Positions 42,769 through 47,571 of a DNA stretch of 64,000 bases are shown here, piece after piece. The DNA is from Gongronella butleri. Its lineage: Eukaryota; Mucoromycota; Mucoromycetes; Mucorales; Cunninghamellaceae. The notes beneath the pieces were generated by a model. It was not told where the DNA came from. It saw nothing but the letters and a program-made list of their open reading frames with translations, and did not search any database. The position numbers and the translations under genes are program-made. The number at the start of each line of letters is the position of its first letter. Position 1 is the stretch's first letter. The stretch is from NCBI GenBank assembly GCA_025201375.1, contig JAIWZP010000004.1, positions 806,001-870,000 on the forward strand, read 5' to 3'.

Positions 42769-43172
42769 ACTGCTTTTTAGATTTGAAAGTAAATAAATGG
42801 CCAAGGCACACTCTGTGATCTTGCCGACCCTGTACTATTAATAATTTACAAGCATAATGCATCTGAATTTTTTGATCATGTTGTATTCTTCTGCTGATGA
42901 ATAAGAAAAAGTACGCTACGAATCAATACATTGAAAATGACTGTATGATACTGTATATACCGGTATGATATTTGCCAATTTCACAAATCTATCATACTGT
43001 AGCCTTATTATGATCTAATAATCACCGCAATAGCATACAGTAACTTGTGGTTAGATCACGTCCAACAAGCAACTCTTTGTCGAGTTTTTTTTCAGAAATC
43101 GGATCACTCAGTCCAGGGAACATCCATTTTGCATAAAAAAATCAGTGCCAAATCATGGTCAAAACTAGGGTA
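42769..43172. other. AT-rich start of the accessory island
   Basis: No ORF. It contains three TACTGTA/TACAGTA heptamers (42949, 42995, 43036) of the kind that recur at 47.4-49.6 kb. PEX1 3' end signals lie in the first 100 bp. Confidence 0.45.
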
Positions 43173-43627
43173 TACTAACGATTCGGTGAAACCGAAACCG
43201 AATCGAATCGAATCGATAATATCGGTTTCGGTTTGGCATTTTTTGAAACCGGTTTCATCGATAAAAATTTCGAGCCAAACCGGTAACCGATAAAAACCGA
43301 TAAGCGGGCATTGAAAAAAAATTGGTGGTACTACTTCGTACAATTTAATCTTTATGGTCAGAAATAGATTTTTAGTGTAGTGGTTTGACGCAGGGACGCA
43401 ACCTGCAAGGTCCAGAGTTCGAATCCTTCTTTGATTTTGCATTTTTTTCCCAATTTTTAAAATTGAGCGCTTCTTTTTTTTGGAAAGGTCACGTGTTGAA
43501 GTCTTAACGATTCGATTCGGTTCGGTTTCGGTTTCCGGAAATCTTATCGATTCGGTTTCGGTTTTCGAAAATATTATCGATTCGGTTTCGGTTTTACAAA
43601 AAAACCAAACCGGTTCATCGATAGTAT
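43173..43627. repeat. Inverted-repeat element with ATCGATTCGGTTTCGG units flanking a tRNA-like core
   Basis: The left arm (about 43173-43300) and right arm (about 43500-43627) carry repeated units of ATCGATTCGGTTTCGG and their complement, so they face each other. The outer ends are alike when one is reversed: ATACTAACGATTCGGTG on the left, ATACTATCGATGAACCGG from the right. A tRNA-like core lies between. This resembles a small non-autonomous foldback element. It directly abuts the 3.77-kb mobile element. Confidence 0.6.
43371..43432 (+). other. tRNA-like (SINE-head-like) segment with A and B boxes
   Basis: TAGTGTAGTGG at 43373-43383 fits an A box and GTTCGAATCC at 43417-43426 is a perfect B box, 44 bp apart. 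A 5-bp stem GCAGG/CCTGC (43390-43394 with 43402-43406) encloses a 7-nt loop. No acceptor stem pairs and position 33 is not U, so it is not a functional tRNA. T-runs further downstream could stop Pol III. Likely a SINE head or tRNA fossil. Confidence 0.45.
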
Positions 43628-43872
43628 GGAGGTCGGTCATAATTGGTTGCCTGTGCTTAGTATGATAGATCAACATTTATTTTATAGGACATCTATGCCT
43701 TTAAAGTCTTTTTAATTGCACTGAACATTGTCTCCCGGGAAGACACTGTGGCCTTATACCCGTGTCTTTGCTTCGGTCCCGATTACGTAATCAATTGGTT
43801 TGCAAATGATTATCTAGACGCGTTTTAAACAATTAGACAAATTTTGAACAAAAAGACTTGCCCGATCGCCTA
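43628..43872 (+). repeat. Left 245-bp direct repeat of the mobile element
   Basis: Identical over its full length to 47149-47393. Begins GGAGGTCGGTCATAATTGG and ends CCCGATCGCCTA; it lacks the TG...CA ends of LTRs. On the minus strand it offers AATAAA-like sequence that could end transcripts of ORF1/ORF3. Confidence 0.95.
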
Positions 43873-43877
43873 CAGCA

Positions 43878-44150
43878 TCAGATGATATTAACGTAAACGG
43901 TTCTTTTTACCTTGCGAGTAACAATAAAGCTAAAGACTACATTTCCAGCGATATTTGCTTCGATTACTCCTTGCAATTCATCACTGCTGCAGCGTGCTTT
44001 CACAATGCCATTATTGAGGACCAGATGTAGATACGTTTTATTTCTGAACGACGCGTATCCATACTTATTTACAGTGTAAGTTTCACCAATGGCAAGACAT
44101 GAATAATCAGCTCTGTATGATGATACCTGAGGGCTGTTTATGACGATCAA
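43878..44150 (-). CDS. Mobile-element ORF3, 90-residue unknown protein
   Basis: Starts inside ORF1 (44-nt overlap, different frame) and stops 5 bp before the left direct repeat. No recognised domain; the translation alternates hydrophobic and polar residues (SFRNKTYLHLVLNNGIVKA) like a small beta-rich fold. It could be an independent protein or a C-terminal extension of ORF1 reached by frameshifting. Its fit to the space supports it being real. Confidence 0.5.
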   Translation of the reverse strand: MIVINSPQVSSYRADYSCLAIGETYTVNKYGYASFRNKTYLHLVLNNGIVKARCSSDELQGVIEANIAGNVVFSFIVTRKVKRTVYVNII

Positions 44151-45561
44151 TGACTCTGGGAGCGCATTGGTTCAAGGATAACATGCTAAAGGAATCTTCT
44201 ATCTTGACCAACGGCGCCAAACTGCGATTGATAGAGTTTTCCAGGCGATGGTTAGGCCACTCGATGTAGATGTTCTTATAGATATCAAGGCCAACGTCGG
44301 CAAACATGCTGATATTTTCTATTTGAAGACGACTACGGGAAGGAAACAAGGAATTGGACAGACCAGGTACCAACGTCATGGCGTTACATCCTTCAGCTCT
44401 TTGGTAACGCTCGTGTTTAATAACGTCATACGAGTGATTGTTACCGGTGGTGTCAGCAGTGATTTGCTCAATAAAGAAGCAGTGGATAATTCTGTCGTTG
44501 AAGCTGAAGTTGGCTAACAAGCACTCAAGTTTATCTCTGCTAATTTTATCTTTACAAATACCATGCATTCGCCTTGTAAGTGAGTTCCACCAATGACAGT
44601 AAGCAAAAGTACCTGTACTCTCAATGTACACTGCAGTAACTTGGGAAAGCTTATCGACAATCTTGTGCCATTGCTCGTACAAGGGAACATTGAAAGTGGG
44701 GCATTCTGCAAGATCATCCAGCAAGTTGTTCATTGCATGTTCGTATGAGGTGGGAGCAAAGAGCGTGCTGCCGTAGATGGTTAATTCGATACGAGTATAT
44801 CCAGCACCTAGAAAACGCTTTAGTCTTTCCATGGATGAGGTATCTGGACTGGCAACAAGATGGCTGAGACGTGATCCTAGGAGCTGAAGAACTTGCGTGC
44901 TTTCCAAGGCTTGAATGAACTTGTTATAGATTTTCGTACGAGTATTTGCGTTGTTCAATTGGGGACACTTGCCTAGGTAAGAGATGCAGTTATCACCAGT
45001 TTTTCGTCGGTCATTCACAATATCAAATATGGTGGCAAGATTGCGTGACAGGAGGTATTTTTCGATGATTTTACGCGTCGAAATGCGTGCGCAATCAACT
45101 GTCACATCGATACTTCGAATTAAGACCCTATTTTCATGCAATCTCGCGAGAGCCTCTTGTTGCAAGGAATGAAGTACGTCATTCAAGCTAATATTATGAA
45201 ACGTGACATTAATACCAAGGTAACCTACTTTATTCCATGATTGACGCATTTCCATTTCCTCAGATGCGAGATCAAAGCTCTGCCATATGCCTTTTCTGAT
45301 ATATTTTATGCGAAACTGATGATTTTCAAAGGCAGATAACAAGCAGCTCTTGATGATACCCATGAAGAACTTGATCTTTTGGGTAACGTCACAATTCGTG
45401 TCAAAGGCGCACCATAGCATAATGCTGTCAACGAAAATGCTCGTAAAATCTGTCCATCCATAAAGTTTGTCATAATTTTCTGTGTAGTCAATACCATAAA
45501 GGTCGTTTAGGTATTGGGAATGTTCATAAAGGAAAGAGTTTACAATAGTGTTGGTCATCAT
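44107..45561 (-). CDS. Mobile-element ORF1, 484-residue protein with faint replication-initiator resemblance
   Basis: A single uninterrupted ORF, divergent from the transposase. Its middle reads SIDVTVDCAR, then NCISYLGKC, TRTKIYNKFIQALES and GYTRIELTIYGS. The order D-x-T-x-D, then Y-x-G, then K-I-Y-x-K, then R-I-E-L recalls Rep_trans/phage-type plasmid initiators, in which the tyrosine near IY-x-K is catalytic. This is pattern memory, not an alignment, and no HUH motif is present. Alternatives are an accessory transposition protein or an unrelated conserved protein. Confidence 0.6.
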   Translation of the reverse strand: MMTNTIVNSFLYEHSQYLNDLYGIDYTENYDKLYGWTDFTSIFVDSIMLWCAFDTNCDVTQKIKFFMGIIKSCLLSAFENHQFRIKYIRKGIWQSFDLASEEMEMRQSWNKVGYLGINVTFHNISLNDVLHSLQQEALARLHENRVLIRSIDVTVDCARISTRKIIEKYLLSRNLATIFDIVNDRRKTGDNCISYLGKCPQLNNANTRTKIYNKFIQALESTQVLQLLGSRLSHLVASPDTSSMERLKRFLGAGYTRIELTIYGSTLFAPTSYEHAMNNLLDDLAECPTFNVPLYEQWHKIVDKLSQVTAVYIESTGTFAYCHWWNSLTRRMHGICKDKISRDKLECLLANFSFNDRIIHCFFIEQITADTTGNNHSYDVIKHERYQRAEGCNAMTLVPGLSNSLFPSRSRLQIENISMFADVGLDIYKNIYIEWPNHRLENSINRSLAPLVKIEDSFSMLSLNQCAPRVIDRHKQPSGIIIQS

Positions 45562-45696
45562 ATTGCACAGACTTTACAAATCTTGCTTGGTCGTCGGCGT
45601 TTGATTATAAATAGCTCTTCACATAAATGATTAATCATGTGACCATTTTAAAACGGGGCTTTATTTGAATGCACTATACATGAGATCAAAGGCAAG
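45562..45696. promoter_or_regulatory. Divergent promoter of the mobile element
   Basis: 135 bp between the ORF1 and ORF2 start codons, AT-rich, with TTATAAATA near 45604-45612 pointing to ORF1 or ORF2. Position is the main evidence. Confidence 0.45.
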
Positions 45697-47136
45697 ATGA
45701 ACGATGATCTTAGACAGTTATTTCAATATTTGGTTAGAATATATTGGTCATTTCTGAATGATGACTGGCCCATTGTTGAAAGAGAGAACCATCGATCTGA
45801 AATAAAGGGAATACTTGGTATAGAGATGGTAAAAAATTACGTGCTTGAACGTTTGGGCTATATACCTGTATATTTCTTTTTGACAGTATTATTTAGCAAT
45901 AGAGATTATCCTGGACCATATCGTGGAGTGGAGAAAGGCCTTTTGATATTGTATCATCTATTGACCGGTGCGTCCATGGATCAAATGGGGCAATTTATAC
46001 CCAAAAGCACCTTCAATACCATTTACAAAGCCTTTTATTCAAAGCAAGTGGACTGGCTAAATAAAAAATTAGATGAATGCCTAGCTGTGATGTTTTCGAA
46101 TGTAAAGATTAGAGTAATGTATGCAAGAGAAATGAATCCTAACGAGTTTAAACATGTAACGATGATGATTGATGGTCACGATTCACGAGCAACCTATATA
46201 AATGCATCATCGAGAGCTGATTATTATTCTTACAAATTAAAGAAATCTGGCTTTCGCACCCAGGTAGGCATGGATATCAATAGCATGATTTTGTTTGTTT
46301 CAGAGGCTGCACCATGTGCTGCAAATAATGATGGTTCGATGCTTGTTTCGATGGATTTATCTGATAAAATAAGTCGCTTTGATGTCGTTTGTGTGGATGG
46401 AGGATATACCCTATTTATAAATCGTATATTGCACATGAACCCCCATCTTCAGATTGAGAGCTTTGTAACTCCTGTGAGAAGATCAAGAGGTGTAAATCTT
46501 AGTGCAGAAGAGATAGCTTATAACCAGCTGCTTGGCGGGTTTAGGTCATCTATAGAATCTCGTTTTGGAGAGCTTGGTCATCTTTTCCATCGATTTAATG
46601 GCAAATCTGTGATCCGCGTATCTGAAACTGCTGTCTTTACGGCACAATTCAAGTTGGCATGCGTTTTAAGCAACATGAAAAAGTTTGTTGCCATGGGACA
46701 ACTTCAACAAACAGATCATCATACATTTTGGATGCATAAAGACTTTGATTATTACGGTGGTACTGCTTCTACTAGTTCTATTTATGATGTCGTCGACATT
46801 TTGAGCATATCTGACAGACGTGCGCATAAAGAGAAAATAGAGACAATACAACAAGAGCTTTTTAATCTTACTATTGAAGATGCTTTTGCACAAGGGAGGA
46901 ATTGTATTGTTAGCACTAATGTTGAAGAAGAGATGGTAATGCAAGATGCCGATCAGAGTACCGGTAATTACGAGGTTGAGAGGATTATTAATCATCGTCA
47001 TACCCCTAATGGCATCCAATACAGAGTAAAATGGATTGGATATGACAACAGACATAATAGGTGGCTATCAATGGACGAATTTAACGACGATGGGAACATG
47101 GTACAAGAATATATGCTTACCATTACTGAGGGTTAA
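45697..47136 (+). CDS. DDE transposase (DDE_4/Harbinger-like) with C-terminal chromodomain
   Basis: 479 residues, no intron. The catalytic region shows D159 in MMIDGHDSRA, D234 in DVVCVDGGY and E287 in GGFRSSIESRFGEL. The last motif, N-x(5)-R-x(3)-E-x-x-F-G-x-L, is typical of PIF/Harbinger-IS5 type nucleases; spacing is about D-75-D-53-E. The N-terminal ~120 residues hold a helical, probably DNA-binding region (LTGASMDQMGQFIPKSTF resembles a helix-turn-helix). Residues ~424-465 (NYEVERIINHRH ... YRVKWIGYDNRHNRWL) are a chromodomain, better known from chromoviral integrases, where it guides insertion to marked chromatin. The reading frame is intact, so the element may be active. Confidence 0.85.
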   Translation: MNDDLRQLFQYLVRIYWSFLNDDWPIVERENHRSEIKGILGIEMVKNYVLERLGYIPVYFFLTVLFSNRDYPGPYRGVEKGLLILYHLLTGASMDQMGQFIPKSTFNTIYKAFYSKQVDWLNKKLDECLAVMFSNVKIRVMYAREMNPNEFKHVTMMIDGHDSRATYINASSRADYYSYKLKKSGFRTQVGMDINSMILFVSEAAPCAANNDGSMLVSMDLSDKISRFDVVCVDGGYTLFINRILHMNPHLQIESFVTPVRRSRGVNLSAEEIAYNQLLGGFRSSIESRFGELGHLFHRFNGKSVIRVSETAVFTAQFKLACVLSNMKKFVAMGQLQQTDHHTFWMHKDFDYYGGTASTSSIYDVVDILSISDRRAHKEKIETIQQELFNLTIEDAFAQGRNCIVSTNVEEEMVMQDADQSTGNYEVERIINHRHTPNGIQYRVKWIGYDNRHNRWLSMDEFNDDGNMVQEYMLTITEG

Positions 47137-47148
47137 TATTTAAAACAA

Positions 47149-47393
47149 GGAGGTCGGTCATAATTGGTTGCCTGTGCTTAGTATGATAGATCAACATTTA
47201 TTTTATAGGACATCTATGCCTTTAAAGTCTTTTTAATTGCACTGAACATTGTCTCCCGGGAAGACACTGTGGCCTTATACCCGTGTCTTTGCTTCGGTCC
47301 CGATTACGTAATCAATTGGTTTGCAAATGATTATCTAGACGCGTTTTAAACAATTAGACAAATTTTGAACAAAAAGACTTGCCCGATCGCCTA
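47149..47393 (+). repeat. Right 245-bp direct repeat of the mobile element
   Basis: Begins 12 bp after the transposase stop codon and is identical to the left copy with no mismatch found on reading both. It may supply the 3' end signal for the transposase transcript. Confidence 0.95.
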
Positions 47394-47571
47394 TACACTA
47401 GTCAAAACGACCCTTGAAGGCTACTGTAACTCGCCGTAAACTCGACGCGATGTTCCCAAACCACAAGCGCTTTTATCGCGTTGGCCCGCTGATCCATTTG
47501 AGCTTTTGAGGTGACTCACACGTTGGGGCGTTCAGCCGTTGCCACGGTACGAGTCCAAATGGTGGCGATCG

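What the first reader, a model, noticed from the sequence alone, without database searches (positions are those of the whole stretch)
43628..47393. A mobile element with direct 245-bp terminal repeats but a DDE/chromodomain transposase
DNA transposons with a Harbinger-like DDE core normally have short inverted ends. Here identical 245-bp direct repeats bound a fully coding, intronless, AT-rich unit, and there is no reverse transcriptase. Direct repeats plus a Rep-like partner ORF suggest an episome-like or tandem-derived element that integrates as one unit plus one repeat. The intact frames and identical repeats suggest recent mobility.
Basis: partly seen in the sequence, partly recalled or inferred. 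Interest (0 to 1): 0.85.

Follow-up and report, generated by a model that had tools for sequence, protein, structure and literature searches.

The report
Fungal transposon with LTR-like direct repeats
This fungal jumping gene carries a cut-and-join enzyme and probably a plasmid-type replication protein, and is bounded by two identical direct repeats like a retrovirus although it has no reverse transcriptase, which suggests that it may jump as a small DNA circle.

Summary
Each unit has short inverted ends of its own. The element is unit–ORF1–transposase–unit with 3-bp target duplications (TAT here). The same 33-Mb genome holds at least five related families. Of 12 copies with two whole units, 11 have 3-bp duplications; so do 22 of 23 examined solo units. 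Paralogous empty sites support insertion. The two units of a copy change together while units of different families have diverged, so a copy's repeats appear to come from one template. ORF2 is a DDE_Tnp_4 transposase with an HP1-type chromodomain. ORF1 has no credible Pfam match, but conserved residues and, less firmly, its predicted fold match Rep_trans rolling-circle initiators, described in print as bacterial with a distant archaeal relative. ORF1 is broken in the window copy, open in others. Architecture precedent: KolobokP (animals, other partner gene). Best mechanism, inferred: a one-unit 3.5-kb circle integrates by cointegrate formation; recombination between units leaves solos and frees the circle. 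Rival: cut-and-paste of the whole composite with homogenised units. New variant of a known kind.

The parts
43625..43627 (.). left target-site duplication TAT
   Evidence: equals 47392-47394; 3-bp duplications at 33 of 35 examined insertions
43628..43870 (+). left 243-bp unit (long terminal direct repeat)
   Evidence: identical to the right copy; solo copies elsewhere end at the same bases
43628..43639 (+). inverted end of the left unit (GGAGGTCGGTCA; partner GGCGATCGGGCA on the other strand at 43859-43870)
   Evidence: 9 of 12 match, by eye; family E 12 of 14
43881..44177 (-). C-terminal part of ORF1, in another frame than the main ORF
   Evidence: match to residues 462-560 of the C59 protein, 98% identity, one stop inside
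44107..45561 (-). ORF1, 484 aa here (560 aa in C59 and C20): Rep_trans-like predicted initiator, truncated frame in this copy
   Evidence: motif and fold evidence from relatives
45562..45696 (.). 135-bp gap between the divergent ORFs, presumed promoter region
   Evidence: position only; function inferred
45697..47136 (+). ORF2, 479-aa DDE_Tnp_4 transposase with C-terminal chromodomain
   Evidence: Pfam DDE_Tnp_4 E 5.7e-9 and Chromo E 3e-10; DDE and chromodomain folds
46969..47112 (+). chromodomain, residues 425-472
47149..47391 (+). right 243-bp unit (long terminal direct repeat)
47392..47394 (.). right target-site duplication TAT

Best explanation
A composite-like DNA transposon of a Mucoromycota-like fungus. 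SHOWN by sequence: two identical ~220-243-bp units, each with its own short inverted ends, flank a transposase gene and a Rep-like gene; full elements and single units are both flanked by 3-bp target duplications; the two units of an element change together. INFERRED mechanism: the mobile form is a circle of about 3.5 kb with ONE unit, kept or amplified by the Rep_trans-like protein. The DDE enzyme nicks both ends of that unit and joins them to a target. Copying the unit fuses circle and chromosome as a cointegrate: duplication-unit-genes-unit-duplication. Recombination between the two units then frees the circle and leaves a solo unit with its duplication. The HP1-type chromodomain may steer insertion towards heterochromatic repeats.
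For: 3-bp duplications at 11 of 12 copies with two whole units and 22 of 23 examined solos. Paralogous empty sites, e.g. for L005, L007, L011 (full) and L017, L023 (solo), at 70-89% identity. Units are 0-3 bp apart within a copy. Three changes appear in BOTH units of a copy: a 3-bp insertion (A/C100), a base at column 60 (C/C29), and allele 77 in B, which maps to the C17+C61 branch of the inside tree, a branch supported by one informative site. The one full copy without a duplication (B/C50) is also the one whose two units carry different alleles of that shared site. The inner flanks of the unit agree between A and 4 of 5 B copies (ACAA|unit|TACAG; in L011 three extra bases precede one unit). 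ORF1 relatives keep D44 36/38, D151 38/38, Y211 38/38, K213 38/38, Q216 38/38, E258 37/38, matching the published Rep_trans site; predicted fold compatible. Of 58 ORF1 protein clusters, 21 have a longest contig of 3.29-3.99 kb, near the size of inside plus one unit. IS6/IS26 elements give the same anatomy by cointegration.
Confidence: 0.5

Rival explanations
1. Whole-composite cut-and-paste: the transposase pairs the outermost ends of unit-inside-unit, moves the linear element, and sometimes moves single units as MITE-like elements. Gene conversion or unequal exchange keeps the two units alike. ORF1 has a role other than replicating a circle.
For: Needs only standard DDE chemistry. 3-bp duplications fit full and solo forms alike. 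KolobokP authors argue that single repeats there can move on their own. All four one-sided unit differences are singletons.
Against: Units of different families have diverged widely while the two units of each copy stay 98.7-100% identical, and three changes entered both units; homogenisation would have to be frequent. It gives the conserved Rep-type active site no role.
Confidence: 0.35
2. Circles integrate by homologous recombination into pre-existing solo units: units spread as small transposons, and full copies are solos that captured a circle.
For: Solos are at least as common as full copies (A 6:4, B 7:5, C 6:2). Same end structure and duplications. A model of this kind is proposed for KolobokP.
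Against: Copy-specific changes present in both units would need the solo and the circle to share them by chance or by conversion.
Confidence: 0.12
3. LTR-retrotransposon derivative moved by a reverse transcriptase in trans.
For: Direct repeats, solos and identical repeats look like LTRs.
Against: No reverse transcriptase domain in the ORFs. Ends are GG...CC, not TG...CA (TG...CA recalled). The transposase is under purifying selection (A-B dN 0.07, dS 0.58) and has a DDE fold.
Confidence: 0.02

Closest known systems
KolobokP composite-like transposons (Kojima & Bao 2022, PMC9587614; abstract and passages read)
   Same: Repeat-inside-repeat with direct repeats that have their own short inverted ends; solo repeats with 3-5 bp duplications; DDD/E transposase; circle and IS26-like models discussed there, pathway stated as unknown.
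   Different: Reported from seven animal phyla; Kolobok transposase; second gene is a His-Me finger homing endonuclease; repeats of ~450 or ~660 bp; multimers common. Here: fungus, DDE_Tnp_4 plus chromodomain, Rep_trans-like second gene, 221-246-bp units, no multimer seen among 12 full copies.
PIF/Harbinger superfamily
   Same: DDE_Tnp_4 catalytic domain and 3-bp duplications. PIF/Harbinger elements are reported from Mucorales (PMC7928374 passages); whether any of those have direct repeats was not checked.
   Different: Long direct repeats, chromodomain, no TWA target preference, no significant Myb-type match in the partner ORF.
IS6/IS26 pseudo-compound transposons (PMC7986276; passages read)
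   Same: Directly repeated units around passenger DNA; cointegrate formation; recombination gives a one-unit circle and a solo with duplications.
   Different: There the repeat encodes the transposase; here the repeat lies outside both ORFs and the genes are the passenger. Bacterial and archaeal, not eukaryotic.
Rep_trans rolling-circle initiators (pT181 RepC/RepD, RepSTK1, ICEBs1 NicK) and archaeal Rep-Arvir (PMC4797284, PMC13107129; passages read)
   Same: Predicted fold compatible with the TBP-like Rep_trans core, and the catalytic positions in order (metal D, D, E; nucleophile Y; K two residues later; Q/E three after that).
   Different: No PF02486 match; ~550 aa; 30 extra residues between Tyr and the metal Glu; Lys for the Arg before Tyr; found in fungi and metagenomes with a transposase, whereas print says Rep_trans appears restricted to bacteria.

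Membership tests
KolobokP | long terminal direct repeats that each have short inverted ends | tested here: met
KolobokP | solo repeats with target duplications | tested here: met
   22 of 23 examined solos
KolobokP | Kolobok-type transposase | not tested
   no KolobokP sequence was fetched; ORF2 matches DDE_Tnp_4 and Chromo
KolobokP | His-Me finger nuclease as second gene | tested here: not met
   no such domain in ORF1 or in 38 relatives
KolobokP | multimers sharing repeats | tested here: inconclusive
   none seen among 12 copies with two whole units, but assemblies can collapse them
PIF/Harbinger | DDE_Tnp_4 transposase domain | tested here: met
   36.2 bits, cut-off 24.8
PIF/Harbinger | 3-bp target duplication | tested here: met
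   33 of 35 sites
PIF/Harbinger | TWA (TAA/TTA) target preference (recalled) | tested here: not met
   4 of 33 duplications are TAA or TTA
PIF/Harbinger | single pair of terminal inverted repeats, no long direct repeats | tested here: not met
PIF/Harbinger | Myb/SANT-like partner protein (recalled) | tested here: not met
   no Pfam match in the window ORF1; of 38 relatives one touches a SANT/Myb-like model at E 0.11, not significant
Rep_trans (PF02486) | Pfam profile match | tested here: not met
   no match in ORF1, 38 relatives or the genome; the Bacillus subtilis control rings
Rep_trans (PF02486) | catalytic Tyr, Lys, Gln/Glu and metal D, D, E in order | tested here: met
   conserved in 36-38 of 38 relatives against the published site. 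Departures: Lys for Arg two before Tyr; the Arg of RxD absent; Cys/Ser near the TxY positions; Tyr-to-Glu spacing 47 against 17
Rep_trans (PF02486) | TBP-like crescent fold | tested here: inconclusive
Rep_trans (PF02486) | nicks an origin hairpin and starts rolling-circle replication | not testable with these tools
   activity cannot be tested; no clear hairpin in the unit: z -0.5 (A), -2.1 (B)
LTR retrotransposon | reverse transcriptase | tested here: not met
   no such domain in either ORF
IS6-type pseudo-compound transposon | transposase encoded inside the repeat | tested here: not met
   the 243-bp repeat lies outside both ORFs

The most novel reading that the evidence does not exclude
A eukaryotic nuclear element that lives as a small circle replicated by a rolling-circle initiator of the Rep_trans type (so far reported from bacteria, with a distant archaeal relative) and integrates by DDE-catalysed replicative cointegration of a non-coding 'attachment transposon', which gives LTR-like anatomy without reverse transcription.
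Probability: 0.33. Interest if true: 0.93.

Novelty: new variant of a known kind. Interest (0 to 1): 0.77.

Why it matters
It shows LTR-like anatomy (direct repeats, solos, repeats that change together) in a DDE transposon of a fungus with a DDE_Tnp_4 enzyme, so the architecture known from animal KolobokP either arose more than once or is older than thought. A second gene with a Rep_trans-type active site would extend that replication family to eukaryotes and supply a possible replicating circle, which KolobokP lacks. It also warns that structural LTR finders may count such elements as LTR elements (inference). The mechanism can be tested directly with circle-junction reads.

Tried and rejected
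Assembly duplication: rejected, because the same structure occurs at many unlinked sites, each with its own flanks. Viral origin: three scans of viral contigs gave no confirmed relative. Relatives of ORF1 in plasmids and phages: one and three chance-level hits. PF02486 in the genome: none. A1 profile against PDB sequences: none. A profile search of proteins returned 32 clusters, 7 of them new, none with a Pfam label. Origin hairpin in the unit: unconvincing. Rfam in 40000-64000: none. tRNA next to the insertion: none. Foldseek on the transposase model gave no hit below E 1e-3; the DDE fold rests on the VIA second look and Pfam.

Literature. Ten searches of the held open-licence PMC library. 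The composite-repeat search (61) and the LTDR+Harbinger search (31) each returned only the KolobokP paper; one search returned nothing. The search for Rep_trans with eukaryotic/transposon/fungal (60) returned one review of secretion systems, seen as a listing only. Claims of absence in print rest on these searches alone. Papers: PMC9587614 outline and passages; PMC4797284, PMC13107129, PMC7928374 and PMC7986276 passages only; all others listing only.

Limits of the counts. Of 17 unit-only matches of the window unit, 10 were counted for duplications; six diverged ones were not fetched and one (L041:435) has unresolved ends. The C102 solo pair shares flanks (a duplication), so solos with independent flanks are 21 of 22. 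Family C and B unit matches come from one search each and are lower bounds. Random windows for the repeat test were drawn from 26 of 110 contigs, those already in view; 1 of 40 random windows matched flanks of three sites. The contig-length tally was made by eye from the longest contig of each protein cluster as listed; the DNA was not read. The transposase homologue list shows 120 of 188. The Rep_trans set was 18 sequences kept after removing near-duplicates and odd lengths.
Full report
Observation. The two 245-bp stretches at 43628-43872 and 47149-47393 are identical and direct. Comparison with other copies places the true ends at 243 bp: the full copies and near-identical solos start at GGAGGTCGG... 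and end at ...CGATCGCC, followed by the target duplication. The window's genome (33 Mb, 110 contigs, unnamed) holds two further full copies at ~99% (C59, C100), one copy split by an insertion (C20) and six near-identical solo units. Inside the repeats lie ORF1 (minus strand) and ORF2 (plus strand), divergent around a 135-bp gap. In the window copy ORF1 is truncated (484 aa against 560 aa in C59 and C20).

Families. Diverged relatives in the same genome have their own direct repeats: family B (five full copies, 221-bp units), family C (two copies, 224-227 bp), family E (C2, 243 bp, spacing 4754 bp, an extra 285-aa ORF, broken transposase) and family D (C105: left unit apparently complete, right unit matching over only 154 bp). 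B units give 17 matches and C units 11 (one a fragment) in the genome, of which 7 and 6 are solos. By the coordinates, the 3' end of ORF1 faces the same end of the unit in A-D; E has the same layout, but its two unit ends are too alike for me to tell which is which. The transposase is divergent from ORF1 in A and B and co-oriented in C, D and E. A-B divergence differs between the genes (transposase 87% aa, dS 0.58; ORF1 64% aa, dS saturated), which suggests that the two genes have different histories.

Insertion. 3-bp duplications flank 11 of 12 copies with two whole units (A 4/4, B 4/5, C 2/2, E 1/1) and 22 of 23 examined solos (A 6/6, B 6/7, C 6/6, diverged 4/4). Several insertions lie in repeats whose other copies lack the element and read through the target, e.g. 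full L005, L007, L011 and solos L017 (88.9% over 296 bp) and L023. Of 33 joined flanks, 18 match another site's flank (16 without one duplicated pair), against 0 of 40 random 300-bp windows among themselves; 1 of the 40 matched site flanks, and GC is 42% against 48%. Insertions thus concentrate in AT-rich repeats. Steering by the chromodomain is an inference; removal of insertions elsewhere by selection would look the same.

The two units change together. Within a copy the units differ by 0-3 bp. Three changes are shared by both units of a copy or clade: a 3-bp insertion in A/C100, a base in C/C29, and allele A at column 77 in B/C17 and B/C61, which form one branch in the tree of the inside (five informative sites for C100+C50 against the rest, one for C17+C61). 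The other differences are one-sided and unique (C59, C20, C61, C29). B/C50 carries a different column-77 allele in each unit and is the one full copy without a duplication, as expected for recombination between two loci. Units of different families have diverged far while the two units within each copy have not. One template per insertion explains this most simply; frequent gene conversion is the alternative.

Distribution. Named relatives in the lists are Rhizomucor, Benjaminiella, Cunninghamella, Apophysomyces, Mortierella and its kin, which are Mucoromycota (classification recalled). The host itself is unnamed. Of 58 ORF1 clusters, 21 have a longest contig of 3.29-3.99 kb, with 2 in 2.65-3.29 and 4 in 4.0-4.9 kb. 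Several such contigs appear to hold both genes, judging by equal lengths (3700, 3585, 3607, 3698). That is near the size of inside plus one unit. It fits circles, but collapsed integrated repeats would give the same.

Mechanism. In a circle with one unit, DDE strand transfer of both unit ends into a target, followed by replication, yields duplication-unit-genes-unit-duplication in one step with identical units; recombination gives back the circle and leaves a solo with its duplication. IS6-family elements are described as doing this in bacteria. Steps shown here: anatomy, duplications, solos, empty sites, shared unit changes. Steps inferred: the circle, the replicative joining, the role of ORF1, the role of the chromodomain. 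The main rival is cut-and-paste of the whole composite with homogenisation.

Known kinds. The architecture has one close precedent in the searches made, KolobokP, whose authors call it unlike any other DNA transposon and leave its pathway open. This element differs in transposase domain, host kingdom, unit length and partner gene. It works like KolobokP and like IS26 pseudo-compound elements, but is a member of neither by the tests made; it is nearest PIF/Harbinger by its enzyme. Rep_trans is said to appear restricted to bacteria in a 2026 paper that adds an archaeal relative, so a eukaryotic member would be new.

Noticed in passing
window 43170-43625: A repeat reaching to within 3 bp of the insertion, with inverted arms 43188-43219/43504-43535; copies at 98-100% on C53, C19 and C1 and a split one on C52.
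   Followed up: partly
L009/L010 (C20:409845-417459): The third ~99% A copy is split inside its transposase by about 7.6 kb of other DNA that includes a chromodomain match, perhaps a retrotransposon.
   Followed up: no
L038:5497-6351 (-): Family E carries an extra 285-aa Cys/His-containing ORF between ORF1 and the broken transposase; no significant Pfam match.
   Followed up: partly
L035:4194-6597: A 51%-identical transposase with an open frame, next to a 254-aa ORF with a weak DUF5763 match (E 4.7e-4, below cut-off); no ORF1 match and no unit found beside it. Possibly a relative without direct repeats.
   Followed up: partly
L016:5826-6050: A B-family solo unit sits 33 bp from the outer end of a C-family full element.
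   Followed up: no
window 43758-43775 (A unit) and the B unit: The otherwise diverged A and B units share the 18-mer ACCCGTGTCTTTGCTTCG in their middle; a possible binding or nick site.
   Followed up: no
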